Positions 1,838 to 52,303 of a DNA stretch of 64,000 bases are shown piece after piece (within the stretch, counting starts at the first letter, position 1; the number at the start of each line of letters is the position of its first letter). The stretch is from Clitopilus passeckerianus (lineage: Eukaryota; Basidiomycota; Agaricomycetes; Agaricales; Entolomataceae): positions 124,001 through 188,000 of the forward strand of contig CALYLX010000083.1 of assembly GCA_944990035.1 (NCBI GenBank). Reading direction: 5' to 3'. Below the pieces are notes generated by a model that saw only the letters and a program-made list of their open reading frames with translations, had not been told where the DNA came from and did not search any database. The position numbers and the translations under genes were made by a program.

Positions 1838-1922
1838 TACGACTTTAGGGTGGGCACGATGAAGATCAAATCGATCTCACCCAAAGCACTCCCAAAGGGC
1901 CCGTTGTAACTTGATCCGATAC
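1838..1922 (+). promoter_or_regulatory. Conserved upstream block of F-box paralog 1
   Basis: The block TACGACTTTAGGG at 1838-1850 starts 85 bp before the ATG. The same block occurs at 18145-18157, 91 bp before F-box paralog 3, and a weaker version (GAGTTTAGGG) near 13057-13066, about 75 bp before paralog 2. This may be a core promoter or 5' UTR element, or simply shared ancestry of the duplicated segment. Confidence 0.45.
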
Positions 1923-28387: not shown

Positions 28388-28430
28388 AGATTCAGCATAA
28401 AAATCAGTAGCTACAAGTACACTGGAAATA

Positions 28431-29402: not shown

Positions 29403-30177
29403 TTCGTAGTCAAAATCGAAGTCGGTCTCTGGTTCAATTGTTTCTGCACTGGGGCGCTCCTCTGGCTCAGCTGTGGGGCTCTCCTCTAGCTGTTGTTGTA
29501 CTTGGTGTTCTTCTTCTTCCTCTTCGGGCAAGACAGAAGCGCTGGTAGACGGGACTAGTGATGGGTTCCTGGATATTGCTGTGGGTAATGGTGCGAAGCG
29601 TCGCTGTTCCTCCTCGTCTACTTCAATGTCGTGTTCTCGTTGAGCTCGGACAATAGCAGGGGTCTTATGAGGTCGTTCAGGGGTAGGGAAGTCTAGAGCG
29701 TGGAAGTGTCTGTTTTCAACGGCAACGGTGGTGAATGTGAATTTGCCAAGGAGAGAGGCGTAGCACCAGCGGTTATTGTTGTGATTAAAACCGCAGTAGC
29801 TTCCGTTGGTGAACTTGTAGACGTTGTTGGTTCCTTCTACTAGAGTGGTATTTCGTGGCGGGTGGTCTGCCCTGTGTACGACCGTGGTGACTGAGTGGTA
29901 GCCGCAACGGCAATCGGCCTGTTGCGTGCTTCTGCTGTGTTGTCGTGGGGTGGGCCTGCGCTAACAATGAGCGGGCCTTCTGAACAGCTTGACCTTTTGT
30001 TAAGGCAGAGCCTAACAACTTAGGTAATACTGTTTACGCTCGATGTCTTTGATAAACAAAGACAGAGATTTGTCAGCAGCTGCGGCTGTACTGACGACCT
30101 GGTGAGATTGACGAAGCAAGGGACTTAAAGGCAAAGTAGAGAACTAAGCAGTTAGGTAGATTGCCTAGGTCAAGCTG
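29403..30177 (-). promoter_or_regulatory. AUG-free 5' leader of gypsy copy A
   Basis: From the predicted start of R (30177) to the gag AUG there is no ATG on the sense strand (no CAT on the plus strand in 29403-30177). From a TAG near 29965 the gag frame is open without stops and would encode a Cys-containing peptide (CRCGYHSV, GSYCGFNHNNNRWCY). It may allow scanning over a long leader or serve a non-AUG-initiated N-terminal extension. Confidence 0.6.
29985..29995 (-). promoter_or_regulatory. Self-priming PBS of gypsy copy A
   Basis: On the minus strand AGGTCAAGCTG lies two bases after the 5' LTR. It is an 11-of-11 complement of CAGCTTGACCT inside the LTR (minus strand, 30177-30167), which sits 33 nt after TATATAA, where the transcript should begin. 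That is the Tf1-type self-primer arrangement. Confidence 0.7.
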
Positions 30178-32106: not shown

Positions 32107-35100
32107 TCAGGTGAGTTTCTTCCTCTTTTTATACTCGGTGAGTATTTTCTTGGCGTTCCGCAGTTCCGACTCGGGCATCCATTCGTTGTCCGCTGATGGC
32201 CATCCCTTCCATTTTACGAGGTATCTGTGTCGCCCTTTGCCTTGTTTCTGATGGGCCACAATTGCTTCTATTTCGTATTCTTCTATTCCGTCGATTTCGT
32301 CAGGTGGCGGTTTAGAGAAGCTGGGTCCATGCGCTTTGGTGGAGATGTAACGGGTGAGAAGTGACGCGTGAATCACCGGGTGGATCTTCCATCGTCTTGG
32401 CAGGTCGAGTTTATAGGTCAGGTGTCCTTTTACCTCAAGTATCTTGAAGGGTCCTTCTCGTTTGGGTGCTAGTTTCTTGGAGATGTTTCCTTGATTGAGA
32501 TTTGTGGCTTCTAACCACACCTTTTCTCCGACTTTGAATGGGGTGAACTGTCGTGTGATCTTCTCTGCCATGCGTTGCGCAGCAAGTGCATGTGCAGCAT
32601 TTGCTTCATCGCGTGCTAGCAGAAGTTCCTTGATCCGTTTGTCAACTGCGGGAATTTTGCTAGTGGGAGCAACTGATGGGAGTGCAGGTGGTTCGTATCC
32701 CATCATTAGGTAGAATGGGGTTCGTTTGGTGACAGAGTGTGTTCGGCTGTTGTAGGAGAATTCTAGAGTGGTAATCCATTTGGACCAGGATTCGGGGTTC
32801 TGTGCACAGAAGATGCGGAGATAGGCATCAATCTCCTGATTGATCCTTTCTGTCGCACCATCGGTTTGTGGGTGGTAGGCGGTGCTCATGTTGAGCTTGA
32901 TTCCAAGGAGTCGTCCCATTTCTTGGAAAACTTTAGAGGCGAATTGAGGTCCTCTGTCTGAAATTCCTTTGTCGGGAAGTCCAAAGCGACGGTAAACGTT
33001 GTCAATGTAGGCGTTTGCAGTTCCTGTGGCGTCGATTTTCTTTGTGCAAGGGATGAAAATTGCCCCCTTCGTAGCTCCATGGTCGACCACGGCCATAATG
33101 CTATCGAAACCATCACTCTCTGGGAGATCCGTGTGAAAATCGTACGTCACTAGCGAAAATGGCCTAGTGGTTTCGGATTTGATGGGCATTAATGGTGGAG
33201 CGGTGGGGTGGCGATTGATTTTCATTTGCTGGCACATTGCACAGCCCTGCACAAAGTTCTTGATGAACACTGACATCCCTGGCCACCAGTAGTCCTTCCG
33301 GACTTTTTCCAGTGTCCCAAATTGTCCAGGGTGTCCTGCGCTGGGTAGATCGTGATAACGTTGGACTATCTTCCTTCGGAGGTCTTCGTCATCTGGTACC
33401 ACACACTTGTCCTTGTAGTACAAGATGCCATCGTCAAATTTCCAGTCTTCCAGGTTTGATCGGATTGGTGGGGGTCCGTCTTCTTTGGCGGTGCGAATGG
33501 CGTCAACAATCAGTTTGTCATTGACCATCTTGTGTACAATTTCGTCCTTTAGTTCAATGTCAATTGAGCGAAGGAAGAGCTTGTCGGGGAGGAGAATGAT
33601 GTCTTCGTTGTCGGTGTCTTCACCTGGGATGTGGTCTGGTCGTCGAGATAGTGCGTCAGATTGTATCATCTTTGCACCAGGGGTGTGTACAAGTTTGATG
33701 TTAAACTGGGATAGCATCAAATTCCATCTTGCTTGTCGTCGGTTCAACTTCCGGGCTTCTCGGAAGTATGTGAGGTTTTGTGATCGGATAGAATCACAAC
33801 TGAATGTTGGGATCCATGGAAGTAGTGTCGCCAGGTTTCTAATGCGCGGATAATGCCTAGAAGTTCTCGGTCGTAGATTTCATAGTTCCGTTCTGTTTCC
33901 GAGAACGATTTAGATATGAAACCACATGGGTGCCATGATCCGTTGGCGTCACGTTGTTGTAGGACTGCTCCTGTTGCATGTTTTGAGGCGTCGCTTTCCA
34001 CCACAAATGGCTTCGTGGGATCAGGCATCAGCAACACAGGCGCTTCCAGGAATTTGTCTTTCAGGGTAGTGAAAGCTTTGTGACATTCATTGGTCCATTC
34101 CCATTTCTTGTCTTTCTTGGTGAGTTCGTTCAGCGGTTTGGCAATTTCCGCATATTTTCCGATGAACCTGCGGTAAAAGTTTCCGAATCCTAGGAATGAT
34201 CGGACTTCCTTTACTGTAGTTGGCGTAGGCCAGTCGCGCATCCCTGCAAGTTTGACAGGGTCCATGGAGATCTTGTTTGGTTCAATGATGAACCCAAGGT
34301 ATTCCACTCTTGTGGTGTCAAATTGGCATTTCTCTGCTTTGAGGTAGAGATCGTTGTTTTGTAGTCTTTGTAAGACTCTGCGTGTGCGTTCTCGGTGTTT
34401 TTCTGGATCGTTGGAGAAGATGAGGGTGTCGTCCATGTAGATGATGACCCATCCTTCGTCTATCATGTCTCGGAAAAGGTGGTTCATCATTGCTTGGAAG
34501 GTACCGGGTGAGTTCATTAGTCCAAAGAACATCACCATTGGTTCAAATAACCCTCGGTTGGTCTTGAACGCTGCTTTCCATTGGTCACCATCTTTGATGC
34601 GGATGTTGTGATATCCCCATCGAATGTCGAGTTTGGTGAAGACAGTTGCTCCTTTGAGTTTATCGATGAGTTCGCTAGCCAGCGGTAAGGGGTAAGCGTT
34701 AGGTATTGTTCCTTCGTTGAGTCGTCGGTAATCCTGACATGGTCTCAGGGCTTCCGAGTCTTTCTTTGCAACAAAGAAGAACGGAGATGCTTGTGGGGAG
34801 TTGGATTCTCGGATGTATCCTTTGGCTAGATTTTCCTTGAGAAACTCGTCGAGTTTTTCTTGCTCTAAGGGGCTGAGCGGATAGACCTTGCAGTCTTTTG
34901 GCACGAAATCTGTCTTCAGATCTATGGCGTGATCCCAGGGTCGGCTTGGTGGGAATCGTTCAGATGCTGCTTTCTCAAAGACTTTTCTGTAGTCTTGAAG
35001 ATAGTCGGGGATGATTTCGTCAAGGGATTTCTTTGGTTCCTTATCTTCTCGTTTATGTTCCAGAGCTTGCGAAATTGATGTTTTCGCACGTATCCACACC

Positions 35101-35839
35101 TGCTGTGTGTGGTGTCTGGTTGCTGGATGGTGTGTTACCACCGTCTGTCGTATTGTGGTAGTTGGCCTGATTGGCCCGTACACAAGGTAATCCTTTGTGT
35201 GTTCCTGCGTAAGTGGGGTTCCTCCTTGGTGAATATTCCGACTGCCGGTTCGTTCTGGCAGTATGCGATGAGAAAATCTTCATTGATCTCTTCTCCGTCT
35301 TCGACTATTCGGAAATAGTCGCTAAGTCCTTCTGATTTTCCGGGATTCTCTTCGGAACAATCAGGTGCTGGGGTAGGTGGCGTGTTTTCCTCTAGTAGTT
35401 GTTCTCGGATGGCTCTCATCCGCTTGATGTCTACTGCTCGCATCAATGTTTGCGACAGTCGTTGGGTAATGCGTGATTCGTCGATTTCGAGTGTGCCGTC
35501 GCTCCACGATATGATTGGATCTACCCGTTTTAGCCAGGGTAATCCAAAAATCAGGTGGTCTTTCCCGAGTCCAGTGACAAAACATCTTTCCTTGATGATG
35601 GCTGTCCCTATCTTGGCAATAACCCAGGTAAAGTGGGTAATAGTTCCTTGTTTGTTCAGGGTGCCATCAACGTTTCGTGCTGTAATCGGTTGTCGGAGTG
35701 GGAGTAGTGGGAGGTGATGTGTCTTGGCGAAGACGGAGTCGATAAATGACCCTTGCGCTCCAGAGTCAATGAGAGCTTTTGTGCCGGCGATTGTTGTATT
35801 TCCATCTAGGGGGTCTTGTAGAGAGATTGGGATACGCAT
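32107..35839 (-). pseudogene. Gypsy copy B pol, three pieces
   Basis: Starts at ATG 35839 (MRIPISLQD) and, unlike copy A, keeps the protease start in frame (DSGAQGSFID). A one-base loss in a G-run at about 35217 breaks the protease-RT junction, and a one-base loss in a T-run at about 33775 breaks the RNase H region after SDHK. RT has YMDDTLIF. Integrase and chromodomain are intact in 33747-32107. Confidence 0.88.
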
Positions 35840-35882
35840 AGATTCAGCATAAAAATCAGTAGCTACAAGTACACTGGAAATA

Positions 35883-36856
35883 TCAATCGGGCGAGGAAGT
35901 ACTGACGTCGGCTTTGCAGTCTTCCTCTTTAAAAACCCTCAGCCTCTGCTTCAGTGTAGAATTCAGCGGCTTCTTCTTGGGGCATGTCAGCTAGGACTGC
36001 TCTGACATATTTGATCAACTCGGCTCCCTTCTCAGGTTTCTTGTGGAATCGGCTGTCGTTGTTGCTAGGGTAGGTTCTTCCAAAATTCTTCCTTTGAAGA
36101 CATTGTTGGATCGTGTGACCTTTCTTGGAGCAATAGTAGCACAAGTTGTTCTTCTTGTGATGTTCTCTTTCCTCCTGGGTGAGGCGGCGTTTGGGTGGAT
36201 CAGTGGTGAAACGATCAACATCCATAGCCATTGGGTCTCGGGCTCCAGTAGGTGTTTTGTAAGCACCTTTGACCATATCAGATGTCTTGATGATACGGGT
36301 ATGTCCCATGATTGTCTTGGCACGTCGCCAGTTGTTGTCAAACTGGACGGCTTTCTTGACCCAATCGTCGAATGTGGTAGGAGGAATCGGAAAAGAGAAT
36401 TTTCTCTCGGAGTTTGGGGGTAAGTCCTTCCATGAAGATCTCAATCTTTGCAGTGTCACCGCTGAGATCAGTTCGTGCAAGAATATTCTTGAAGACGGTG
36501 ACAAATTCGTCAGCTGTCCCATCCTGTCGTAAGGCTTTGAGTTGGAGGAGTGCGGCAGCTTTGTCGTCGGTAGGGGAAAAGGCTTCTTTGAATTGGTTGA
36601 TAAATTCAGCGTAGGTGGCTTTCCTTTCAGCTGCTGAATATTTATCGTGAAATTCTAATCCCCATGCTGCTGCAGTTCCTTCTTTGAGGAAGGATAGGGC
36701 GATGCGAATCTTCTTGTCATCTTCGAGTTGGTTGAGGTTGTTTAGGATGAGGTAGTCTTCAAGTTCCTGAATGAACTTTCTGGTCTTGGATCGGTCTCCG
36801 GAGAACGTTTGGGGTTTGGCTCCAATGTCCTTCTTGTTGTTGTTGTCTTGTGACAT
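35883..36856 (-). pseudogene. Gypsy copy B gag, frameshifted
   Basis: Begins at ATG 36856 like copy A. A G-run near 36416-36420 is one base longer than in copy A, so the frame leaves Gag after EGLTP, and an A-run near 35936 is also one base longer. The CCHC knuckle is still present in the shifted frame. Confidence 0.85.
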
Positions 36857-37440
36857 TTCGTAGTCGAAATCGAAGTCGGTCTCTGGTTCAATTGTTTCTG
36901 CACTGGGGCGCTCCTCTGGCTCAGCTGTGGGGCTCTCCTCTAGCTGTTGTTGTACTTGGTGTTCTTCTTCTTCCTCTTCGGGCAAGACAGAAGCGCTGGT
37001 AGACGGGACTAGTGATGGGTTCCTGGATATTGCTGTGGGTAATGGTGCGAAGCGTCGCTGTTCCTCCTCGTCTACTTCAATGTCGTGTTCTCGTTGAGCT
37101 CGGACAATAGCAGGGGTCTTATGAGGTCGTTCAGGGGTAGGGAAGTCTAGAGCGTGGAAGTGTCTGCTTTCAACGGCAACGGTGGTGAATGTGAATTTGC
37201 CAAGGAGAGAGAGGCGTAGCACCAGCGGTTATTGTTGTGATTAAAACCGCAGTAGCTTCCGTTGGTGAACTTGTAGACGTTGTTGGTTCCTTCTACTAGA
37301 GTGGTATTTCGTGGCGGGTGGTCTGCCCTGTGTACGACCGTGGTGACTGAGTGGTAGCCGCAACGGCAATCGGCCTGTTGCGTGCTTCTGCTGTGTTGTC
37401 GTGGGGTGGGCCTGCGCTAACAATGAGCGGGCCTTCTGAA

Positions 37441-37918: not shown

Positions 37919-39296
37919 CTCAGCCCTACCAGAACCGCCTGTGAGCATGCCACCAATATGGCCACGTATGTCGGCGATTATCGAGCCCGAATCGCCAGGT
38001 TCCGAAAAGACATCGGACTTGCTATCATAGTTGATTATCGCCCACTCCATGGAGGTCCGGTGAACCGACATGTCGGTGAAGTAGTCGCGAACGATGGAGA
38101 AGGCGCCATTTGCGCGGCCAAGGGTGGTGTCGGTGGCATTGCCGTTCTTCACAACTAACAAGCACGGGTCGCCGTATGAGTCCCACGTGTCGGGGGTGTG
38201 CATCAATTCATCAGTCATGATGACAACAAGCGGAAGTAGACGATTAGTGGGATACTTGAACTCCCAGGTGGCGTTTGCGCAGGGGAAACATTTGACCGTA
38301 AACTCGGCGGGAGTCAGCTTCGTTCCTAGATATAAGCAAAAACAATTTAGGTTGGTTAATAGACAGTCTTAGTCGGATGGATAGTCAAAACGCACCGAGG
38401 TCCAACTTATTACCTTGGAAGCCGTCACCGAGTTTGTCCCGGTCGACCTGGAAAACCCCCCCCCGTCCTCCGTGAAACGTTGTTCACCAACGCCGAGACT
38501 GATGGCTGGGGAACGGAGGACGTGCCCAAGGACACGGTTGCCGAGCCTTTTCCAGTCCTTGTTGACCCGATTGAGCAACGCTACAAGTGCCTCCATCGCG
38601 TCCTCGGTGCCGTCCAGCAACCTCTGAGTCTTGATCCGGGCCACCTTTGCTTCCTCGACATCGGCAGTGTCACTGCCCTTCTCCATCTCCCCGAACTCTT
38701 TAATCTCTTTTCTCCAGTGCTTAACTGCAACACCGTGTAGTCCGATCTTGAGCTTGATTGAATCGACGAGCTTGGTGAAGGCAATCTTGTTGAGAAGGAG
38801 GACGTCTCCGCAAGGCGCACTGGGGTGGTGAACATAATCGAGGTTGGCTTCCTTCGACCCGACAAGGACGTGGCGGCACGAAAGGCCCAAGATGCTGTTG
38901 CTGTCGCCACCTTCTGCAAGGTAGAGGGCCATTGTCCCCTGAGTGTCAGGCTCGGCACTGGTAGAGATGCCGAGGCCGAGAGTGGGAGTGACAGGACTAA
39001 CGACGTCGACGAGTGGGTCCAGCCCGTCGACAGGTTGGAGAAGCTCAGGACCAGCCTTGCGCGTGTAGTAGGATTCACGGTAGTCAATGTCAACGTCGGT
39101 GATCTGGTATCCCTGAGAAGGGCTAAGACGTCCTGAGCTGCGTCGTGGGCAGCTGTAGCGGATGTAGACTCAGGGAAGACGCCAATCCAGATGGTGACAG
39201 GACCGACGGCAGGTTTCTTAGCCTTGACCGTTTCTTTATCCTCGTCTTCTTTTTCACCCTTGACGTCTTCTTCATACTCAGGCGCTTCGTAGACCC
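37919..39296 (-). pseudogene. Peptidase-like host gene, central piece
   Basis: On the minus strand the frame enters from the 9-bp duplication CGTAGACCC, runs through an acidic/lysine linker (YEEDVKGEKEDEDK) and VTIWIGVFPEST, and contains GLSCRHVL and FSEPGDSGSI. The His in CRHVL and Ser in GDSGS fit the His and Ser of trypsin-fold peptidases, so a degenerate S1-like peptidase is the best guess; no Asp could be assigned. A 70-nt intron lies at 38326-38395. Two frame breaks exist: one base missing near 39110-39113, and a 9-C run at 38456-38464 that needs one more base. The piece is cut at both ends by mobile elements. Predicted role of the intact family: unknown. Confidence 0.7.
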
Positions 39297-39419
39297 CAGA
39301 CTCCTAAAACCAGTCTCTCCCTGCGCTCGGCCATCCGGGGGATGCCGGTTCCCGAAGGGAACCAAACAAACAACTTTAGTTGTTTGCGAGCGCAGCGAGC
39401 GACTGGCAAACTTTCCAGT
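39297..39419 (+). repeat. Left terminal inverted repeat with nested palindromes
   Basis: Contains paired arms CCAGTC (39310-39315) with GACTGG (39401-39406), TGCGCTCG (39322-39329) with CGAGCGCA (39387-39394), GGTTCCC (39347-39353) with GGGAACC (39357-39363), and AACAACT (39369-39375) with AGTTGTT (39378-39384). The two outer stems are separated by 6 nt on each side. Confidence 0.85.
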
Positions 39420-39569
39420 GGAGCATCAGAGCCATCAGGCTCGCTTGTAGTCGGTAGCACGTTTTAGGAATCTCAACATATGGCCCTCGCGAAATAAAAT
39501 AGGGTTAGGTCTAAGGGCCATGTCACGCTGAATTGAGCAGTCAGACTTCCTAATTGAGTCAGTTCGTTC

Positions 39570-42307
39570 ATGCCTCAAAGCACAACGCGTCGTAAGTGGA
39601 CTGTTGAGTCCATTCACGACCTTGTGGAGCAAAGGTTCAAGAAACGAGCATGCTGGTTCCAAATTCAGGTGGCTCAGGCCCTATACGACGGCAAAGACGT
39701 TGTAGGATGTGCCCCTACAGGTGCCGGCAAGACACTTTCATTCTGGATCCCCCTTCTCATGTCCCTTGCGGATGGCGAGGACAAAATGACATTTGTTATC
39801 ACGCCACTGAACATCCTGGGCAAGCAGAACGAGCAGCAACTACTCGAGGCTGGACTCCCTGCTGTGGCAGTTTCAAAAGAGAACGCAAACGACCGGATAT
39901 TTGCAGTGAGTTCAAACGAGATAAACATTTTACATGCGGCTCATAGCTAGTAGGATATCAAAGACGGCAAATTTCGAGTGATTGTCATGAACCCTGAAAT
40001 TGTCATGGTTAATGAAAAGGTTGTTGCATGGTGGAAGCAGCCTACCTTGACCAAGAGAATACTGAACTTCATCCTTGATGAGGGCCACTGCGTCAGTCAA
40101 TGGAGCACATTTCGCAAAGAGTATGGACTCCTTGGTCAACTCAGGCTCCTGATACAAAACCGAGTTCCCTTCTATGTTGCCTCAGCCACCCTCCCTCCTC
40201 CCGTGCTCCGAGAAGTTGAAGGAATACTCCGCCTCCGCCCAGAGACAACCGAGCATCTCCTGCGCTCGAATGACCGCCCAGATATCCACCTGATGGTCCA
40301 ACCCTTGGTTCACCCAGCTAACAGCTTCCGCGATCTCGACTTCCTGGTATCCCCTGAAATACAGGAAGGTAGAGCATCCCCACCAAAGTTCCTTGTATTC
40401 TTCGACAACACTAAAGAAGCGGAGGCAGCGTGTCATTACCTCCGAGCCAAGCTTCCAGAGTCAGAGGCGTCCAAGCTTCGATATTTCCATTCAGTCATGA
40501 CACAGAGTTATCGGGAGAAAAATGTTGAAGAGATCCAAAAGATGATAGCTGTCCGTTTTTGTTGTACCAACGCGTTTGGAATGGTAAGTGTCTGCTCCAA
40601 CACCCATGGACACTGCTGACTTGTATTTGCAGGGAATGGACGTGTCGGACATTGAGATTGTGGTCCAATATAAGGCGACGTGCGACTTGTGCACGTTGTG
40701 GCAGCGATGGGGACGTGGAGCTCGAGGCGCAGATTATACGGCTGTTGCAATTCTGCTTGTTGAGAAAAAAGACACGAGGGAGGAGAGAGAGGCAAAAACT
40801 AAGCGTGCCGAAAAACGGAAATCCTCAAAGACGCCGACAGGACAGATGAGAGGGAGGAAGCATAAGGCTCCGACTTCAGAGCCGGATTCCCAAGCCAAAT
40901 CACCCAAGCGTCCCGCGCTCGCTCAAAGAAACTCCAACCTCAATAAAGATCCACCGAAAGCAGGTGCAGAAGAGGTCGACGGAGGTGCAGAGGAGGTCGA
41001 TGCCGCTGTTGATGACCCCGAGACGTTCAACGTTACAACGTGGTTGGCGGAAAGGCGGATTGAGTATGGAAAGGGAGATAAGACGGTAGGTGATGGGCGT
41101 AAAGACCGTGGTGTTGTGGAAGGCAGCGCGATAGATGATTTCATCAACCTAGCATCGCTGGCGAAGGGCTCAGAGGACGTCGTTTGCAGGAGGTTGGTGA
41201 TGAAGTCATATATGGGAAGTGACAGACCCGATCGACTCGGTAAGCGCTCGAACTGTTTGTTGGCAACTCGCTCACACGCCCTACCTTGGTTAGGGCTGCA
41301 GGATCACCTTCTCTGTGATCCTCTTACCACTGGCGGTTGTTCTCGCTGTCGCCCACGAACGCCCACGATCTGCTGCGACCAGTGCAGCCCAGATTACTTC
41401 CAAAAGTTCATGGTTGGGTCCCAGAAGAATGTCACACGGAACACCAACGGCAAATCCCAGCTACCGAAGAACTGGACGAAAACTAACACCGACAATCGCC
41501 TCACCAACGCTCTCATTCAATGGCGTGACGCCGTGGCACTGGAACGGTTTGGATGGGGCGTATACAACACCCTCGGCAGCCGCCTGTTAATGACGGACGA
41601 CACCGTCGACGCTATCGTTGCGTATGCTCACAACGGCAAGATACATACCATTGAGAGCATCACGAAGGAGACTGGTTGGACACACGAGGCTCACTGGCTC
41701 AAGGACCATGGCCAATCTCTTCTGGCGCTCATTCATGAGCATTACCCGCCACCTGCTAAGGATTCTGCGCCAGCCTCTGGTTCTCAACGGTCATGCAAGA
41801 TCTGTGGACAGCCAGGTCATAATCGTAAGTAGCATGCTTCCTCAAGTCTTTATGCACCTCATTTCTATGTTTCCAGGAGCTACCTGTCGAATTTACTGCA
41901 AGTACTGCGAAGCCTCTCAAGAGAAATGTGGGCACAGCTCACAGACTTGCCCATCCCTCAACTCGTCCACACCCTATCGATCATCCGCTATTTGCTCACC
42001 TGCAAAAGGTATACCAAACACCTCACAAACGCCTCTGCGCTCTCGCGTAACAAATGACGAAAACATACTGCCCGTCGACCCACCAACAGTCGCAATTCCA
42101 CGTCACTATCAATACCTAGTGGATCGAACGCCCACGACTCCTTCCGCACCTACAACAGCCAACCGTTATTTATATTCGCCATATCTACTCGCTCGTCCAT
42201 CGTATTATCTACCTACAGGTCCGCCATCAAGTCAGCATCATCATACGCCTCACGATCAAGGACATCTTCCACCGCATCCTCCCTCTCCTCTGTACCGTCG
42301 CTCGTAA
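39570..42307 (+). CDS. RecQ-like ATP-dependent DNA helicase with zinc knuckle (element-encoded)
   Basis: Exons 39570-39905, 39954-40583, 40633-41239, 41294-41824 and 41877-42307 keep frame and give 844 aa; all four introns are 48-54 nt GT-AG. SF2 motifs: I APTGAGKT, II DEGH, III ASAT, V-like NAFGM/GMDVSDIE, VI QRWGRGARG. Motif II is DEGH rather than DEAH. After the helicase core comes a basic Lys/Arg region, then a Cys cluster (CDPLTTGGCSRC, CCDQC), then CKICGQPGHNR...C, a CX2CX4HX5C knuckle, with more Cys (CKYC, CGHSSQTC). The C-terminus is Pro/His/Tyr-rich. Cellular RecQ proteins carry RQC and HRDC domains, which I do not see. The gene begins 150 bp inside the left TIR. It appears intact. 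Expected activity is 3'-5' DNA unwinding, inferred from the family. Confidence 0.82.
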
Positions 42308-42962
42308 GTGTTACATTTGACGTGTCTTTGAATGGCTTGCTCATGCCAATTGCCATTGCGTCAGGTAATGCATAATTTGTAGTTCGTCCAGGAATATATT
42401 CATTTGGTCTTGCCTCGTGTATGTGGAGTTGGAGCCTCTTGAATGTCGCCTCCATGTTCGGTGATGAGTGGCGGATAGTTCTGTTATCAAGATGGAACAT
42501 ATTTTCAAACTGGAGCCGTAAATTCTTGTACACCTCAATGAGCACTGACTCCTCAAGAATTCGACTTTTTTGGTGGTTAGAATACTTTCCGCCGTGTATT
42601 CTCTAGCCAAAGTGTGAGTACATCATTTCCCTAACCCTGAATGATTACTGACCTTGATAAAGAGGTTGTTGTGTTCGACGAGCCAGTCTATGCCACGAAA
42701 GCAACCTTTTCGCCCCGTCGGATTGCAAAGAATGTTCATTCGGATGGCACGACTGAGACCCTTAGGATAATGAAAGTGTACGTTCTCCAGATATCGTCGC
42801 ATCTCCAAGGCATACTTATGTTTGCCGCAGCCTTGAAAGATATACATCCACGGGACAAATAGGACTTCAACACGCCCAATGTCACCATGGTTGAGTGCGT
42901 AAGACATTTCCTCATACCAGAGGAAATAGTCGTGCAGTAGCAGCGTGTTCTCCTGTTGCATG

Positions 42963-43376
42963 TGTCGAACAGGCACACCCCCAGCGAGGGAAGGTGCAGT
43001 AAGGCTACTAACCTGGGGTAGAGTAGAGTGAGGCTGTGAGAGCGAACTAGAGAGAAAAGAAGTGTAACTCCTTGTTATATTGAGGTAAACTACTGCTAGT
43101 ATTTATACAAAAGGATAGAGTGCACAGACCATGTATATGTAAGCATATCTAGAATGTTCTGTGCTAAATATAGTATGGAATACACAAGGAATGACGAAGA
43201 ATGAGTCATACGTGAGTCATGATGATGTCATTGTGGAGCGGAATGTGCTAGAAGTATTTGTAATGCTCCACGTGTGTATGTCATGATAATGACGCAATCA
43301 AGTAATGTGATTTGTAGTCATGTGGTGTCACGTGACTGTTCATGTGACAAAGATGTGAGACGCGTCAAGTTCAACA
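42963..43376 (-). repeat. 3' LTR of copia element
   Basis: 414 bp, matches 49277-49690. The purine-rich GCGAGGGGGTG on the minus strand just inside it is the likely polypurine tract. Confidence 0.92.
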
Positions 43377-43396
43377 CACCCCCTCGCTAAGAACAA

Positions 43397-46300
43397 CTAG
43401 GTAGTTTTCTGAGCGGATGACTTGGACGAGTAGAACTCAAGTCCCAATTGGCTTCGGAATTTTCCGAATTTGACATGTCCCAGATTTTTGGTGAACATAT
43501 CTGCCGGGTTTTGTTCTCCTGGTATGAACTCAACATTGACGATGCCATTTTCAATGCATTCACGAATATAGTGATAGCGGATGTCAATGTGTTTCGTTCG
43601 TTTTTCCTGAACAGGGTTTGATGCAATGAATAACGACCCTTGGTTGTCACCAGCGATAGGTGTCGTATCATATTCAATCCCGATCTCGGAAAGGAGAGAT
43701 TGAAGCCATGTGACTTGTCTACATGTGTCAGACAAGGCCATGTATTCGGCTTCAGTAGACGAGAGTGCAATTGTTTTTTGTGCACGTGATTGCCAACAGA
43801 TGATTCCATCAGCAAGTTTCATGAAAAATCCGGATACGGATCGGCGGGTATTCTCATCAGATGCCCAATCACTGTCTGTAAATGCTACTAAACCTTTATT
43901 GGATGCACCGTTGTAAACGAGTGCATATTCTTGAGTTCCAATAAGGTATCGTAGAATATATTTAGCCTTATCAAGATGTTCCTTGGAAGGATTAGCAGAG
44001 AACTGCGACAACTTGATTACAGCGTAAGCGATGTCCGGTCGGGTGCCCAGCATCAGATACAGTAGTGATCCGATTACGGATTGAAACTGTGTACGAAGTT
44101 GTGGGTCTGGAGCCTGAGCGTTAGCCTTGGGCTTCCAACCAGTTGGTAGCGGTGTCGGAGCAGGTTTAGCATTAGTCATTCCAAAACACTGTAGGACCTT
44201 TTTGAGATATGGCACCTGATCAAGTTTGATCGTGTTACCAGTCCGAGAAATTCTCATGCGTAGGAATTCCTTAGCTTCTCCAAGGTCACGACACTTCTTC
44301 ATAAATTCGGATTTTTTCTTCAGAACAAGGTTCCGATCTGATCCGAAGAACAGGGCGTCATCAACATAGACAACGGCAATGACTATCTTGCCATCATTGG
44401 TTCGGTAAACGAACACGCCGGCATCAGAGATAGTGCGTTTAAAGCCAAGTGCTTCCATTGACTTTGACATTTCTCGCCACCACGAGAGTGATGCTTGCTT
44501 AAGCCCATATAGAGCTCTTTTGAGACGCAAGACTTTGTGTTCTTGGCCTTTGACAGCGAAGCCTTCAGGTTGTGACATATAGATTTCCTCATCGAGTAGT
44601 CCATACAAGAAAGCGGATTTGACATCAACACCTTCTATGTGCCAGCCTTCTAATGCCGCAAGGGCAAATAATAGGCGCACAGTCTCAAATCGTACAACTG
44701 GGGAAAAGATCTCGTCAAAATCTATACCCTCGATCTGTGAGAAACCTTTGGCAACGAGTCTAGCCTTTTTCCGACCATCAGTTTTGATGTCGAAGACCCA
44801 GCAGTTTTTAACCACTTTGCGGCCTTTAGGCAAATCAACAAGTTCAAAAACGTCACGTTCTCGGAGTGCCTCTAACTCCGATTGTGCCGCTTTCATCCAT
44901 TCCTGTTGCTCCGCTTTTGGCAGTCGAGCAATATCACGAAATTGCATTTCGCGAATGTTTGATGGAAGACGGTTCTTTCCATCAGATAGAAGTGCATGAT
45001 CCGGTGGTGTTGCATTCTCATCAGATGACATAGTCATATTAGCCTGATGGAGCAAGTATTGGATCAGAGGCTCTCCTCCATCCTTGCACGCATTGTGCAA
45101 CCAGGCGAGATCAACGTCCATCTGATCTTCATCATTAGGTTGTTGATTCTTTGGATGATCATCCGGGGATGTATCCATGTTATCGCCTGTCTCTCCTTGA
45201 TCTACAGTATTACTTGGAGGTTGTTCGCTAGTAACCGGTGCATCTGGCCTAGTTGAAGTCATTTGAGAAGATGATTGATTGCTCTTTCTCTTTGGCTTCG
45301 GTAGGTTTGGTGCGTACAGCCGGTGTTTATTTGGAATGCCTACAGTGCGTTTCCATTTTCGCTCTGATGCAATAGTTTCCTTCAATATTTCAGAAGGTAA
45401 CCGGTCTTCGCCGTAGATGTTACCCGGTCTTCGAGTAACATTCCTCACACGTGTACCTCGACGTGGCTCAGTGGTGTTTGAAGAATCACCTCGGCTATTC
45501 TGAGGGTCAAAGTTGTTCCGTGATGGAATTGTGTGAGGTGGAGTCCATGTGTCCGGATTAGGATCACTTGGAGCATTCTCTTCCGTCGGGTTAGGTCTGT
45601 AGGACTGTTTACCCTTATCCTTGCTTGATAAGCGCGGAGAGGAAGGTGGAGAGGGAGAAGAGGATCGGGAATGATCATGTGAAGCGTGATCATTTGGATG
45701 TGATGGTCCTGGAGCCGTTCCAGAGTTATCATCATCCCCCGTTTCTTCAGGAATAGGTTGATTTGGGGTATCATCCTCCAAATCCGTCGAAGGGATTGGC
45801 TTATCGCCGACATGTGTAATGCCACGTTGTTTTTGATCAGGGCACCTTGGGAACAAGGTTTCATCAAAAGTCGCTGTGGTGCCTATAAATAGAGTATTGT
45901 TATGCGTCCGCATGAACAGGTACCCTTTGGTGCCACGAGGTTGGCCAAGATAAACCATCATTTCGCTTTTGGGGGATAGTTTATTGACACGTTTGTCCTC
46001 GGGTAGATAGACGTAGGCTCCACATCCGAACACTCGGAAATGAGTAATGTCCGGTTTCTCCTTGTGAATGATCTCATGTGGTGTGACCCACTTGAGTCGT
46101 CTAATTGGAGTGCGATTTATAAGATGAGTCGCATGTTCCATGCTGAATTCCCACCAGGATGGAGGTAAGCAGGCCTCATGTCGCATAGACTCTGCTTTGT
46201 CCATAATGGTACGATTAAGTCGTTCCGCACGGCCATTTTGTTGAGGCGTGTGTGGAGCGCTTTTGTGAACCTCGATGCCTAATTTGCGTAACGCGGCTTC

Positions 46301-46429
46301 AAATTTCATGAATTCACCACCCCCATCAATGCGCCATGATTTGATAGATGAACTGAAACGATTTTTGACCATCGCTTCAAATTCTTCCATCTTCTGGATG
46401 GCATCCGATTTCTTTTTAAGGAAACCAAT
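43397..46429 (-). CDS. Copia integrase C-part, RT and RNase H (after in-frame TAG)
   Basis: Open from just after TAG 46430-46432 to TGA 43397-43399; the first ATG is at 46390 (997 aa from there). Motifs: integrase second Asp and Glu (IDGGGEF, PQQNGRAERLNR), then a long Ser/Pro/Asp-rich linker, RT (KARLVAKGFSQ, DVKSAFLYGLL, YALYGLKQ-type core, YVDD near residue 675) and RNase H (FTDSDWASDE, SSTEAEYMALS, KHIDIRYHYIRE). No other break. The upstream TAG separates it from the gag-protease part, so unless the stop is read through, this half would not be made. Confidence 0.88.
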   Translation of the reverse strand: MGFLKKKSDAIQKMEEFEAMVKNRFSSSIKSWRIDGGGEFMKFEAALRKLGIEVHKSAPHTPQQNGRAERLNRTIMDKAESMRHEACLPPSWWEFSMEHATHLINRTPIRRLKWVTPHEIIHKEKPDITHFRVFGCGAYVYLPEDKRVNKLSPKSEMMVYLGQPRGTKGYLFMRTHNNTLFIGTTATFDETLFPRCPDQKQRGITHVGDKPIPSTDLEDDTPNQPIPEETGDDDNSGTAPGPSHPNDHASHDHSRSSSPSPPSSPRLSSKDKGKQSYRPNPTEENAPSDPNPDTWTPPHTIPSRNNFDPQNSRGDSSNTTEPRRGTRVRNVTRRPGNIYGEDRLPSEILKETIASERKWKRTVGIPNKHRLYAPNLPKPKRKSNQSSSQMTSTRPDAPVTSEQPPSNTVDQGETGDNMDTSPDDHPKNQQPNDEDQMDVDLAWLHNACKDGGEPLIQYLLHQANMTMSSDENATPPDHALLSDGKNRLPSNIREMQFRDIARLPKAEQQEWMKAAQSELEALRERDVFELVDLPKGRKVVKNCWVFDIKTDGRKKARLVAKGFSQIEGIDFDEIFSPVVRFETVRLLFALAALEGWHIEGVDVKSAFLYGLLDEEIYMSQPEGFAVKGQEHKVLRLKRALYGLKQASLSWWREMSKSMEALGFKRTISDAGVFVYRTNDGKIVIAVVYVDDALFFGSDRNLVLKKKSEFMKKCRDLGEAKEFLRMRISRTGNTIKLDQVPYLKKVLQCFGMTNAKPAPTPLPTGWKPKANAQAPDPQLRTQFQSVIGSLLYLMLGTRPDIAYAVIKLSQFSANPSKEHLDKAKYILRYLIGTQEYALVYNGASNKGLVAFTDSDWASDENTRRSVSGFFMKLADGIICWQSRAQKTIALSSTEAEYMALSDTCRQVTWLQSLLSEIGIEYDTTPIAGDNQGSLFIASNPVQEKRTKHIDIRYHYIRECIENGIVNVEFIPGEQNPADMFTKNLGHVKFGKFRSQLGLEFYSSKSSAQKTT

Positions 46430-49045
46430 CTAGACATGTGATGAATGATCGCAGAGGAATGTGATGATATACTTGTAGCCATGATACGATCTAGTCGGAA
46501 ATTCCTTGAGATCGGAGTGTATCAACTCAAATGGCTTTGAAGCACGTGTTTCGGATGTCGGGAAGGATTTTGATGGCATCTTCCCTAAAGAACATCCTTT
46601 GCATACGGGGTTTTGCTTGGGAAATTCAAGCTTCTGTGGAACACCGCGTGTATGCACCTGAGCACGTTTAAGCACTTCTTTGGAGGGGTGTCCAAAGCGT
46701 TTGTGCCACGTGTCATAGTTGGTATTCGTATTAACGATTGCCGGCATGGCAGTGTCAGGAGTAGATATTTGGGTACTAAGCCAATATAGCGTTTCGCCAG
46801 GACAATGCGGTTTGCACTGCATCATAGCACGATTTTCTTCCTTAGAATAGAAATACATGCTAGATGATGATCCACGAAGTAGCAGACCATCGTCTTGTAG
46901 AAAACGTCCCATAGACAAAAGTCTTACTGAGAGCTCTGGGAAGTAGTAGACAGGATACAACCGTGAGGTTATTTCTACCGTCTGCTTGGAACCGGGTTTC
47001 TCGAGTTTGTGTCTTAAGATGACAGTGCCTCTGCCAACGACTTTGCCTCTTCCGTTAGCAGTGATGACTGATCCGAAGTCGCCTTCTTCAAAGTCTGCAA
47101 AGTCATCGAGAGTGTGTGTCAAATGCATTGACGCTCCGGAATCCATTATCCAGTTGGCTGTTCCGTTTTCAGGAACTTTTCCCTTTCGGCAAGTTGTACA
47201 TTTAGCAGCATGATTGTCATATTGTTGTGACGTTTGAGTCACAGATCCTAGTACGGGCATACAAATCATAGGGGAGGTATGCATAGAGTCCGAAATGTGC
47301 GTATGTAAAGTATCAAAAAAGTCCGTGTGATTGCGAGAATTAAGCTGTCGCTGGTTCCACCGAATCTTCTCCGAAGAGTGAATCGTAGAAGGCGTCACTA
47401 TGACTTTTTGATTAGCACAGGATCTGATATCATGTGAAAATGGTACTTGCCTGTCGTCCATATCAAGATCGACAGTTTCCTCCAACTGCTCACCAGTGAC
47501 CATGGGAGAACCTTGACGCTGATCTTCGATTTCCATTTCCTCGGCCCAATTGCTAGTGATGGCAGGGCCATCAAATTCGAAAGGGGTAAGAGAGCGAGAA
47601 CACTTCTTTGGGCGAGGGGAATCGTCAATCTTATCGGCGCGCTTGTCCTTAGAAGATTTTTTAGACGGACGTTGGCGCGGGTCAATGGTTTTGCCGCAGT
47701 TGCTGGCGTGTACAAGTGGCAGTTTGCTAGGTGCTACCCAGCAGCCACAACGAAGTTGACATGTCAGCTCCTCTTCATACTTGGCGTGATCAGGATGCTC
47801 ACATGATTCGTCATTGACGCAATCCAAGAGATGAGGGTAAGGGCAATTCTCCCGAAGGATCGTAGCATAATCCTTTTCAACACCGTCAATAACACGTTTG
47901 GTGTCCCAGTAGCCTGGGAGACAACCCACCCGGATGTTATAGTCGTGGATACCGCATGCCAAGAGGAGTTCACGATCAGTGAATTGGCGATCCTCATGGA
48001 ACTTTGCCATCAAAGGCGAAAGATACCTGCGTTCGATAGGCATGTTCATGCGTTCGAGGAACGCCTTGGCTTGTGCGTATCGGGGGTCAACTTGATCACC
48101 GGATTTACCGGGACCAGTCCACGAAGCGGGTGGTGAAACACGTTCAGAGAGCGTGACACCAAGACGGTTAATGAGAGCGACCTTAGAGGTCGTCGGTGGA
48201 GATGGAGCTACAGGAGCAGGGGGTTGATGGATGGCTGCCGAAGCAAAGCCTAGGACCACATTGGCGTTACCGGATTGTTGCTTGTTCCCTTTGCTGGTGT
48301 TAGCACGGCGAGTTTTCTTCTTCTTGTCAGAAGAGCCCGAAGATTCGCCTTGCGGCTTAGACTGCTGTTGGTTTTGACCCTTTTTGTGTTTCGGATCAAA
48401 ACCCTTGCGCTTGACAGCAGAAATCTTGTGGGCGGAGCCAGAAACACCAGAGGATCGGCGTTCAGCTTCAGCAATGATGGCCGCTCTGATGTCAACAAAC
48501 TTCAGATCGGCAATCTTCTTGCCGCTTGACAGTTGCATGGCTGCAACTGCATCCCATTTGGCGGGGATAGCAGCAAGCAAGATCATTGCTTTGATAAACT
48601 CAGGGATTTTGGCGTCTCCTAAATTGGAGTCGAGACGCTCAAACAACACATTAAGATTGCTTATTTGCGGAGTTGGGGCGGAGCCATCCAACTTGAATGC
48701 AATAGCTTTCTTAAAGTCGACAAAGACGACAGATGGGCCAGGGGTAGCATATGCTTTCTCGAGACTGTCCCAAGTTTCCTTGGCAGTGTCTCCAACGTGA
48801 ACGCGCATACCCTGGGAAAGTGTCAAAGTGATGTCGCCGATAGCTTGATCATCTTTGCAGTCCCAATCCTGTGCTGCCTTAGTCTCTTCCGGCTTAGGTG
48901 GAGATGACTCAGTCGGGCGGGGAATACCGCCGTTCGTGTACTGCCACACTCCTTTTGATCGGAGATAGGCTTTCATCTGTTCCGACCATTGGATCCAGTT
49001 ACTTCCATCAAAGATGGAAACAAAGTTCTTGACGTTTGATGACAT
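46430..49045 (-). CDS. Copia Gag, protease and N-terminal integrase (ends at TAG)
   Basis: 871 aa from ATG 49045. The N-terminal about 220 residues are a copia-type Gag (FDGSNWIQWSEQMKAYL, WDSLEKAY). Then comes a basic stretch (PKHKKGQNQQQSKPQG), a His/Cys-containing region, protease with WIMDSGASMHLT, and integrase zinc site HKRFGHPS...CKGCSLGK followed by the first catalytic Asp in HSDLKEF. It stops at TAG in HSSHV-stop-IGFLKKKSDA, where relatives usually have an aromatic residue, so TGG to TAG is the simplest explanation. No typical CCHC knuckle of Gag was seen. Confidence 0.88.
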   Translation of the reverse strand: MSSNVKNFVSIFDGSNWIQWSEQMKAYLRSKGVWQYTNGGIPRPTESSPPKPEETKAAQDWDCKDDQAIGDITLTLSQGMRVHVGDTAKETWDSLEKAYATPGPSVVFVDFKKAIAFKLDGSAPTPQISNLNVLFERLDSNLGDAKIPEFIKAMILLAAIPAKWDAVAAMQLSSGKKIADLKFVDIRAAIIAEAERRSSGVSGSAHKISAVKRKGFDPKHKKGQNQQQSKPQGESSGSSDKKKKTRRANTSKGNKQQSGNANVVLGFASAAIHQPPAPVAPSPPTTSKVALINRLGVTLSERVSPPASWTGPGKSGDQVDPRYAQAKAFLERMNMPIERRYLSPLMAKFHEDRQFTDRELLLACGIHDYNIRVGCLPGYWDTKRVIDGVEKDYATILRENCPYPHLLDCVNDESCEHPDHAKYEEELTCQLRCGCWVAPSKLPLVHASNCGKTIDPRQRPSKKSSKDKRADKIDDSPRPKKCSRSLTPFEFDGPAITSNWAEEMEIEDQRQGSPMVTGEQLEETVDLDMDDRQVPFSHDIRSCANQKVIVTPSTIHSSEKIRWNQRQLNSRNHTDFFDTLHTHISDSMHTSPMICMPVLGSVTQTSQQYDNHAAKCTTCRKGKVPENGTANWIMDSGASMHLTHTLDDFADFEEGDFGSVITANGRGKVVGRGTVILRHKLEKPGSKQTVEITSRLYPVYYFPELSVRLLSMGRFLQDDGLLLRGSSSSMYFYSKEENRAMMQCKPHCPGETLYWLSTQISTPDTAMPAIVNTNTNYDTWHKRFGHPSKEVLKRAQVHTRGVPQKLEFPKQNPVCKGCSLGKMPSKSFPTSETRASKPFELIHSDLKEFPTRSYHGYKYIITFLCDHSSHV

Positions 49046-49262
49046 GGTAATCTGTCAAACAAGAATGTTAGCTTATGTTGCACATGCGACAGCGAGAAGC
49101 GTGCTATGAGCAACAAGCTACAGCCCTCTATGCTGTGAACAGCGTAGAGTACTTCCTGAGCAATATCAAAGGTGCTGCCCTTCAGGTGCTACACTTTGAG
49201 CTCAGTGGCGAAGCCAAGCTGCACAGCGATCAGCTACAATTAAGTAGCGATCAGCTTGCAGG

Positions 49263-49276
49263 CAGGGCCCATAACC
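49263..49276 (-). promoter_or_regulatory. Copia primer binding site (initiator tRNA-Met half)
   Basis: The plus strand immediately next to the 5' LTR reads CAGGGCCCATAACC, one base from the anticodon arm of fungal initiator tRNA-Met (CAGGGCUCAUAACC). The minus strand is therefore complementary to an internal tRNA fragment ending in the anticodon loop, as described for Drosophila copia. Confidence 0.7.
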
Positions 49277-49690
49277 TGTCGAACAGGCACACCCCCAGCG
49301 AGGGAAGGTGCAGTAAGGCTACTAACCTGGGGTAGAGTAGAGTGAGGCTGTGAGAGCGAACTAGAGAGAAAAGAAGTGTAACTCCTTGTTATATTGAGGT
49401 AAACTACTGCTAGTATTTATACAAAAGGATAGAGTGCACAGACCATGTATATGTAAGCATATCTAGAATGTTCTGTGCTAAATATAGTATGGAATACACA
49501 AGGAATGACGAAGAATGAGTCATACGTGAGTCATGATGATGTCATTGTGGAGCGGAATGTGCTAGAAGTATTTGTAATGCTCCACGTGTGTATGTCATGA
49601 TAATGACGCAATCAAGTAATGTGATTTGTAGTCATGTGGTGTCACGTGACTGTTCATGTGACAAAGATGTGAGACGCGTCAAGTTCAACA
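49277..49690 (-). repeat. 5' LTR of copia element
   Basis: 414 bp, matches 42963-43376; followed by TSD GCATG. Confidence 0.92.
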
Positions 49691-51714
49691 GCATGTCTCT
49701 GTCATCGTCGTCCTTTCGGCGTAGAGACGAGAGGTGATGAGGTGGCGGTGCATACTTGCGAGCGAGCTCGTCTGCAAGTTTCTCAACCTCTTCCCAGGTT
49801 GGTTCCGAGGCTGCAAACTCCTCGAGAGACTTGTGTTTCTTTTCCGTAGCCGTGATGATCCGTGTCCATGCGTCGAGACGGAGCACTGTCCCCACATGCT
49901 GAATGACTTCGTGCATCTGTCGGAAGGTGGGTTTGCTTTCTATCTTCCCCGTTTCTTTTGGTCGAAGTTTACTGACATAATCTGCCAGACTAGTGGTGTC
50001 CTTTCGAGCATCCTTTGGGAAGATGCATATCTTCCAGATGGCAACCACACACGCCATCTTGAGATGAAATAGGCCCATGACGAAGACAATAGCCTGGAGG
50101 CGATTCCAGTCTGATGTATCCTCAGTACGCGAGTTGATGAGGCTCCGAGCATGCTGACCGGTGAGCAAGTCCCCAACCACGAGCATCACCATATTAACCG
50201 GGTTGACAACTCCAGGAGTCTCCTCGGGATCGCCAACTGCCGCTTGCTGGAAAATGTGGTCAAGGGCATTTGCGTTGTCTCCAGGGGTACTGGGCTTGAT
50301 ATCCATGGCACTCATAGGTAGCTGCTCGGTCTTCGTGATGGGTATCGCTTCTATGACTTCAGGATCCCCCAGGGTGCGTCAAAACTTCACGCGAAAATAC
50401 CCAGGACCGTGGCTGATCAAATCCTCTTTGAATTTGTAGGACACGTAACGCTGGCGACGCGTTAGCCCAGACGGGTGCTCCTTCTCGGGGTGTATGGCTA
50501 TGAGCTTGTCAATTGTCACGGCGGGGCGATTGGGCAGGTTCATCGAAGGGTTGATGGCGGTCTTCTCCCATACTTCCTTCGCACAGTCAAGGTCTTCTCG
50601 CTTCACTCCGTGATTCAAAGGAAGCATCGTGGCTGATGTAAGATGGATGAGGGTGTCGGCTGAGGTCTCAACAGTAGGTGTAGAATGCTTCAAATCCATG
50701 TCAAGATTGTCGTATGCGTACATGGTGAGTAAACCGCGCCCTTTTGCTCGTATAGCATGTAACGCTGACTTGGACAGATTCTTGATTGAAGAGTTAATTG
50801 AGGTGGACGACACAGAGAGGCCTGCATGTGCCAGAAATTCTCGAACGGTCTCTGGGGTGCCGCAAGAATGAAGAAAGACCCCAATAAGCCCCTGAAGGGC
50901 ATTGCATTGTCGGTTTGTGCTATTCGCCATGATACTGATACATATGACCTTTTTCTATTGCTATCGGTGAGCAACACGTATACCAGCTTGGGACAGTATC
51001 AAACTCACGATTTCAAGCAGTGAATCATACAGCATGGTTGAAGAACTGTAGCTGTCTTTGTTCCCTTCCTCGGCATCTGTTTGCTCGTCGTCGTCGCCTC
51101 CAATTGCTTCAGCAAATCCCTCTCGGCATCTCCTCTTTGATGATGCACCTGATGTCTGCCCGTTTGCGCGTTTTCTTTTCCACTCCCTCTCCTGATTGAC
51201 GTCTGAATCAGCAGAGAGCAGCGAGTCCATCAGCCGCCACAAAGTAGGTGTCACCCCCCGCATCTTCTTGGCAATCTGGCTGATCTCAATCTCTTTCAGC
51301 CTCTTTTCGGTGACATCGTCGGCAATAAATCGAAGTTGGTGCCTCTCCTTTGTGAGCTCGGCGACTTCAGCCTTGAGTTTGTCCTCGAATTGTGCGACAG
51401 TTCGGCCGTCCTGCAGCAAGGTACTACCCCAGATAACATCAAGCAGAGGGTTGATTCGTTCAGGGAAACTTTGGCTGTCCAACAGAGAGGTGATAAACTC
51501 CTCTGGAGTGGTACCCTCTCGGTCAAGAAATCCAAGGATAGCTCTAATTTTCGAGTCGGCGAGTGGCATGGAGAGAGTGGCCCTCCCTTTGTGACAGGCA
51601 GTCTGTATTAGGTAGTTTTCTATCACGTGGATGCTATTTTATTCTAAATAATAAACGCGTGGCCACCTTTTCCGACTGCCAAATGTGGTCGAATCTGATG
51701 TCCGTGATCAACGG

Positions 51715-51831
51715 ACTGGAAAGTTTGCCAGCCGCTCGCTGCGCTCGCAAGCAACTAAAGTTGTTTGTTTGGTTCCCTTTGGGAACCGGAACTTCTGCCG
51801 AGCGCAGGGAGTGGCTGGTTATAGGAGCCTG
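51715..51831 (-). repeat. Right terminal inverted repeat with nested palindromes
   Basis: Reverse complement of the left TIR with about eight substitutions and one variable patch. The outer stem is CCAGCC with GGCTGG, i.e. a compensatory change relative to CCAGTC with GACTGG on the left. TGCGCTCG/CGAGCGCA and GGTTCCC/GGGAACC are kept; the AACAACT hairpin has one mismatch. Confidence 0.83.
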
Positions 51832-52303
51832 CGTAGACCCCGACCTTCTTGAAACGAACAATGTCTATCGTCGTAAAGGGGATCTAGAGATCCTTGTTAG
51901 CAAACTCTACGATATGACAGAGGATTATAACTTGCCGTATGAGCATCCATAACATCGACAACCTTCCAGGCCAAGTCGTGGTTCCAGACCTTGGTAATCG
52001 GATGGGCAAAGACTTCGCGTAGCTCCTTTAAACGGCGATAGGCCTCGGGTCCTCTGGGAGGGGACCACTGCTCCTTGCCCGTTCGATAGAGCAACGTGGG
52101 CTCAGAAGGCAAGCCCGCATAGTAAGATTGGGCCTCCGCAATAGAGACAGCATGCGGATCAGGGGTGTAGGAACTAGCGCTGGACGCGGTGTCACGGCCA
52201 GAGCTCAGAAATGAGACATGAGCGTCCCTGTAAGCAGAACTCTGAGCCTCGTAATAGCTCTTGGCGAATCGAATGTACTGCTCGATAACTTCGGCAGAGA
52301 GCA
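51832..52303 (-). pseudogene. Peptidase-like host gene, N-terminal piece
   Basis: On the minus strand an exon from 52303 (acceptor TTTCAG just upstream, with branch-point-like TACTAAC) to 51936 encodes EVIEQYIRFAKSYYEAQSSAYRDA, then GLPSEPTLLYRTGKEQW and VWNHDLAWKVVDVMDAHT. A GC-AG intron (51884-51935) follows, then IPFTTIDIVRFKKVG, reaching the 9-bp duplication. The start codon is in an upstream exon I could not place. It joins in frame to the piece ending at 39287. The region resembles N-termini of Agaricomycete proteins bearing the CRHVL and GDSG motifs; function unknown. Confidence 0.65.

What the first reader, a model, noticed from the sequence alone, without database searches (positions are those of the whole stretch)
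39297..51831. Inverted-repeat mobile element encoding a RecQ-like helicase and a DUF6589 protein
Seen: long inverted terminal repeats, a 9-bp direct duplication CGTAGACCC, and removal of the unit restores the host reading frame exactly, which is strong evidence of insertion. Only two genes lie inside, convergent and filling the unit. Known: DUF6589 proteins and RecQ-like helicases are abundant in Agaricomycete genomes without an agreed role. Inference: they may travel together as one transposon class, with DUF6589 as the likely transposase or recombinase and the helicase as replication partner. No known transposase was recognised.
Basis: partly seen in the sequence, partly recalled or inferred. 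Interest (0 to 1): 0.95.

Follow-up and report, generated by a model that had tools for sequence, protein, structure and literature searches.

The report
Helicase-carrying jumping gene of mushrooms
A 5.8-kb jumping gene, likely of the known AcademH kind, sits in a mushroom-type fungal genome in three nearly identical copies; its uncharacterised DUF6589 gene is predicted to be the cutting enzyme that moves it, which would give a role to a protein family found in many mushroom species.

Summary
The insertion is real and its borders are right. Element 39297-51831 has 117-123-bp terminal inverted repeats and a 9-bp duplication; homologous contig C82 carries the empty site. Without it the element is 5,802 bp, like an uninterrupted copy on contig C34; a third copy lies on C156. 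All three have different 9-bp duplications; C34's empty site is on C36. The genes are a RecQ-family helicase and a convergent DUF6589 gene. AlphaFold models of two DUF6589 homologues match DDE transposases (Hermes, P element, RAG1) above all other folds, and two Asp and a Glu are conserved, so DUF6589 is likely the transposase. DUF6589 and this helicase type share contigs in 11 named fungal species. Helicase, 9-bp duplication and predicted DDE transposase fit the published AcademH lineage; no Academ sequence was on hand, so membership is likely, not shown. All three copies share an in-frame stop in DUF6589. Each terminal repeat could fold into a branched hairpin. Verdict: new member of a known kind; the link of DUF6589 to a transposon is the useful part.

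The parts
39288..39296 (.). target-site duplication CGTAGACCC, left copy
   Evidence: single copy (one mismatch) in the empty site on C82
39297..39419 (+). left terminal inverted repeat (123 bp), begins CAGACTCCTAAAACC; inner arms 39310-39329 / 39387-39406 could form a branched hairpin
39570..41832 (+). RecQ-family helicase gene, 721 aa, exons 39570-39905, 39954-40583, 40633-41832 (gene model inferred from GT-AG introns and motifs)
   Evidence: on the C34 copy Pfam DEAD 2.1e-22, Helicase_C 3.5e-12; best PDB match of residues 1-373 is RecQ, 9.3e-23
42213..42962 (-). 3' part of the DUF6589 gene (exon 3 at 42213-42602, end of exon 2 at 42653-42962)
42958..42962 (.). 5-bp target-site duplication GCATG of the nested Copia element, left copy
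42963..49690 (-). nested Copia LTR retrotransposon inserted into the DUF6589 gene; LTRs 42963-43376 and 49277-49690 are identical (414 bp)
49691..49695 (.). 5-bp target-site duplication GCATG of the nested Copia element, right copy
49696..51569 (-). 5' part of the DUF6589 gene (exon 1 at 51009-51569, exon 2 from 50954 down); in-frame TGA at 50379-50381
   Evidence: whole gene as read on C34: Pfam DUF6589 3.8e-97; the two window pieces 1.2e-45 and 1.9e-34
51715..51831 (-). right terminal inverted repeat (117 bp), ends GGTTATAGGAGCCTG; inner arms 51728-51747 / 51799-51818
51832..51840 (.). target-site duplication CGTAGACCC, right copy

Best explanation
The unit is a 5.8-kb terminal-inverted-repeat DNA transposon, likely of the AcademH kind, whose DUF6589 gene is predicted to encode its DDE transposase and whose second gene encodes a RecQ-family helicase; the copy in this window is broken by a nested Copia retrotransposon. 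Shown: the boundaries, three copies with three different 9-bp duplications, two empty homologous sites, the helicase family, the nested insertion and the shared in-frame stop. Predicted: the DDE fold and the triad D269, D449, E703 (element numbering; D131, D309, E560 in homologue P0002). Inferred and untested: the DUF6589 protein binds the inverted repeats, cuts the ends and joins them to target DNA with a 9-bp stagger, which host repair turns into the duplication; the helicase would unwind the ends, each of which could fold into a branched hairpin, or the strand-transfer product. Whether movement is cut-and-paste or replicative is open. Since all three copies share the stop, they probably last moved with transposase supplied by an intact relative, or with a split or read-through product.
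Confidence: 0.8

Rival explanations
1. The unit is a DNA transposon of a superfamily separate from Academ that independently joined a DDE transposase (DUF6589) to a RecQ-family helicase.
For: DUF6589 shows no link to any other Pfam family or, by sequence, to a solved transposase; its closest folds are Hermes and P element, and a C/DxxH motif lies between the second Asp and the predicted last Glu in this element and 49 of 77 homologues.
Against: Helicase, 9-bp duplication, DDE-type fold and basidiomycete relatives together match the published AcademH description.
Confidence: 0.12
2. It is a KolobokH element, the other fungal transposon group described with a RecQ helicase.
For: KolobokH encodes a RecQ helicase and is reported only from fungi, and a rhodophyte Kolobok has the helicase on the other strand, as here (PMC9587614); the C/DxxH motif of that group is present in this element.
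Against: Kolobok makes TTAA 4-bp duplications and has termini 5'-RR..YY-3'; here duplications are 9 bp, none TTAA, and termini are CAG..CTG.
Confidence: 0.03
3. DUF6589 is a passenger or regulator, and the real transposase is supplied in trans; the element would be non-autonomous by design.
For: All three copies here have a stop inside DUF6589 yet are nearly identical and inserted at different sites.
Against: DUF6589 is the only other gene found, the predicted fold is that of transposases, and long homologues are listed from many fungi.
Confidence: 0.05

Closest known systems
AcademH lineage of Academ DNA transposons (Kojima 2020, Mob DNA 11:15; seen here only through passages of citing papers)
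   Same: helicase gene with DEAD and Helicase_C domains, 9-10-bp target duplications, DDD/E-type transposase, low copy number, Basidiomycota hosts
KolobokH transposons
   Same: fungal, RecQ helicase with a DDD/E transposase; C/DxxH motif present in this element and 49 of 77 homologues
   Different: TTAA 4-bp duplications and RR..YY termini
hAT (Hermes) and P element transposases
   Same: closest solved folds to the DUF6589 models; long stretch between the second Asp and the predicted last Glu; C/DxxH motif in part of the family
   Different: 6-12% identity in the structural alignments; hAT duplications are 5-8 bp; no element-borne helicase (recalled)
Helitrons
   Same: helicase-encoding eukaryotic transposons
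   Different: HUH nuclease (passage); no inverted repeats with target duplications (recalled); no such domain found here

Membership tests
AcademH | 9- or 10-bp target-site duplication | tested here: met
   9 bp in 3 of 3 copies; criterion from PMC10045372 passage
AcademH | encodes a helicase with DEAD and Helicase_C domains, RecQ-like in fungi | tested here: met
   criterion
AcademH | DDD/E transposase | tested here: met
   by predicted fold and conserved residues only; catalysis untested; criterion
AcademH | transposase sequence homologous to Academ transposases | not testable with these tools
   no Academ reference sequence held; the defining paper is not held
AcademH | terminal sequence motif of the lineage | not testable with these tools
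   not given in the passages read
AcademH | low copy number in Basidiomycota | tested here: met
   three copies found in a 64.8-Mb assembly (the search gives lower bounds); closest named homologues are mushroom fungi; criterion
KolobokH | TTAA 4-bp target duplication | tested here: not met
   9-bp duplications, none TTAA; criterion
KolobokH | 5'-RR..YY-3' termini | tested here: not met
   termini CAG..CTG in 3 of 3 copies; criterion
KolobokH | C/DxxH motif between second D and last E | tested here: inconclusive
   CGKH in this element and C/DxxH at that column in 49 of 77 homologues; a first scan that stopped at residue 481 had missed it
hAT | target duplication of 8 bp, or 5-7 bp in variants | tested here: not met
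   9 bp in 3 of 3; hAT lengths from PMC12730594 passages
Zisupton/KDZ | 8-bp target duplication (Zisupton) | tested here: not met
   9 bp in 3 of 3; criterion

The most novel reading that the evidence does not exclude
DUF6589-helicase elements are a distinct mushroom transposon superfamily whose ends fold into branched, parvovirus-ITR-like hairpins, and the RecQ-family helicase is the partner that opens those ends for a RAG/hAT-like DDE transposase.
Probability: 0.1. Interest if true: 0.72.

Novelty: new member of a known kind. Interest (0 to 1): 0.42.

Why it matters
DUF6589 is a family of unknown function found in many mushroom species (named hits), deposited there as hypothetical proteins. 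Tying it by predicted fold, ends, target duplications and empty sites to a helicase-carrying transposon would let annotators treat such genes as transposon genes, and it supplies concrete ends and genes for testing why a DDE transposon would carry its own RecQ-family helicase.

Tried and rejected
Relatives in viral contigs and genome contigs: none confirmed by tblastn. Sequence-only link of DUF6589 to solved proteins: none; the four hits at E 0.88 are GabR fragments. BFVD fold search: nothing convincing; a Catovirus DDE transposase ranks 10th at E 1.1. Profile search for distant relatives: the 120 listed of 489 all carry the DUF6589 Pfam domain, and the named ones are mushroom fungi (class recalled, not looked up); the other 369 were not shown, so animal relatives were neither found nor excluded. 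Rfam on 39000-52200: none. Short derivatives of the element: none seen, though that search can miss repeats. A further DUF6589 fragment on C152 has no recognisable terminal repeat near it (best matches 12 bases), and tblastn of both proteins gave one helicase match at E 0.002 over 56 residues, read as chance. An alternative 22-nt intron over the in-frame stop was considered and dropped because it breaks the frame (reading). E481/E482 were first taken as the third catalytic residue; the Hermes end points (model 597 to chain 609) point to E560 instead. Following from that mistake, my first C/DxxH scan stopped at E481 and found at most 22 of 82; rescanned to E560 it finds CGKH at 509-512, 49 of 77, so the motif is no longer used against hAT or Kolobok, and KolobokH was raised from 0.02 to 0.03. 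One search aligned the wrong stretch of L049 and was replaced. In one search the paralogous site at C83:92 kb did not align over the junction; its strand was not corrected and it is not used as evidence.

Papers: seen only as search listings or passages, none whole; the AcademH paper itself was not seen. The library holds no paper with the term DUF6589, none with Academ-H and none with Academ, XPG and transposase together. The claim that DUF6589 has not been linked to Academ in print rests only.

Full report
Observation. The inverted repeats are real: 39345-39419 pairs with 51715-51789 at 96%, and 39297-39331 with 51797-51831 at 89%. CGTAGACCC flanks both ends. With the flanks joined in a script the host frame stays open across the junction. 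A homologous segment on contig C82 carries this contiguous site: 92% over 1,000 bases on the left, 90% over the first 533 bases on the right, where the match ends exactly at the insertion point; the rest of the right flank matches further along C82 at 77%.

A Copia LTR retrotransposon lies at 42963-49690, with identical 414-bp LTRs and a 5-bp duplication GCATG; its two long open frames match RVT_2 and Retrotran_gag_2. It splits exon 2 of DUF6589. Without it the element is 5,802 bp.

Other copies. Contig C34 holds an uninterrupted 5,802-bp copy (218302-224103) and C156 a copy split by a Ty3/Gypsy-type retrotransposon. The three copies differ by 20, 28 and 30 of 5,802 positions, 72 of 78 pairwise differences being transitions. 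Their duplications are CGTAGACCC, GAGCAGGCC and CGGAATCGA: 9 bp in 3 of 3. C34's empty site is on C36, with one mismatch in the 9 bp. For C156 the left flank has nine other matches; three were compared with the joined flanks and none is an empty site.

Genes. Helicase, + strand, three exons, 721 aa: DEAD 2.1e-22 and Helicase_C 3.5e-12; RecQ, WRN, BLM and RECQ1 head the solved relatives of residues 1-373. DUF6589, - strand, three exons, 839 codons, Pfam DUF6589 3.8e-97. These searches used the C34 copy. The gene models are inferred from GT-AG introns and homologue motifs; no transcript was seen. All three copies have an in-frame TGA at codon 379 of DUF6589, between the first and second predicted catalytic Asp, and C156 has another at codon 225. 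Between copies the helicase shows 9-11 amino-acid-changing and 1-2 silent codon differences, DUF6589 2-3 and 5-8; numbers are too small for a test.

Pairing in other fungi. Of 172 listed DUF6589 proteins (82, 90 more from the 120 listed of 489), 16 share a contig label with a helicase among the 120 listed of 1,474: 15 of the 73 closest helicases are involved and 0 of the 47 more distant ones. The distant ones come mostly from metagenomes, so they are a weak control. The matches cover 11 named species and one unnamed 6,850-bp contig. Adjacent tags: H0H92_004012/004013 (Tricholoma furcatifolium, whole contig 5,792 bp), QCA50_004608/004609 (Cerrena zonata), BN946_scf184690.g3/g2 (Trametes cinnabarina); two apart: PC9H_011710/011708 (Pleurotus ostreatus); a second Cerrena match, QCA50_004425, is far from the helicase on its contig. 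The DNA of these fungi could not be fetched, so their ends are untested.

Ends. Each terminal repeat contains its own inverted repeat and could fold as single-stranded DNA into a branched hairpin (left z -7.0, right z -4.8, 0 of 200 shuffles as stable for either). Left and right differ by one compensating pair, T-A against C-G at columns 18 and 106; the left-only inner stem is missing on the right. This is a property of the sequence; use by the element is inference, and the likeness to parvovirus ends is recalled.

Filing. Published passages give AcademH a helicase and 9-10-bp duplications, Academ a DDD/E transposase, fungal Academ copies PF00270 and recQ_fam domains, and AcademH low copy number in Basidiomycota. 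All four fit; a Marasmius oreades paper reports widespread nonautonomous Academ insertions, which were not seen here. Sequence homology to an Academ transposase could not be tested, so AcademH membership is likely, not shown. KolobokH fails on duplication and termini, hAT and Zisupton on duplication length.

Verdict. A real, recently moved, now apparently disabled transposon; a new member of a known kind. The useful new point is that DUF6589 is predicted to be a DDE transposase and probably the AcademH one; the library holds no paper with the term DUF6589.

Noticed in passing
window 50379-50381, and the same codon on C34 and C156: All three copies share one in-frame stop in DUF6589 although they sit at different sites, so the stop probably predates their spread; how they moved is unexplained.
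   Followed up: partly
39297-39419 and 51715-51831: Each terminal repeat could fold into a branched hairpin with inner palindromes; one left/right difference in the stem is compensating.
   Followed up: partly
window 24654-29531 and 32107-37222: Ty3/Gypsy-type retrotransposon open frames of one family, two copies in this window (Pfam run on the first only: RVT_1, RNase H, integrase, chromo); a close relative interrupts the C156 copy of the element (L046).
   Followed up: partly
window 1911-2903, 12964-14016, 18236-19084: Three similar open frames (SLPFELI...GDRS or GDRT...LLF), which look like a duplicated gene family.
   Followed up: no
flanks of the element, with relatives on C82 and at C83:92 kb: The element appears to sit in an exon of a host gene whose DNA has relatives on C82 (92%) and elsewhere on C83 (82%); the 300-aa open frame of the C82 relative has no Pfam match.
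   Followed up: partly
proteins P0207 and P0017: DUF6589 in one predicted protein with PF12937 (Pleurotus pulmonarius) or PF26138 (Pisolithus tinctorius): merged gene models or captured transposase.
   Followed up: no
G000:C152:465088-465276: Diverged DUF6589 fragment (E 5.2e-11) outside the three copies, perhaps a remnant of an older element.
   Followed up: partly
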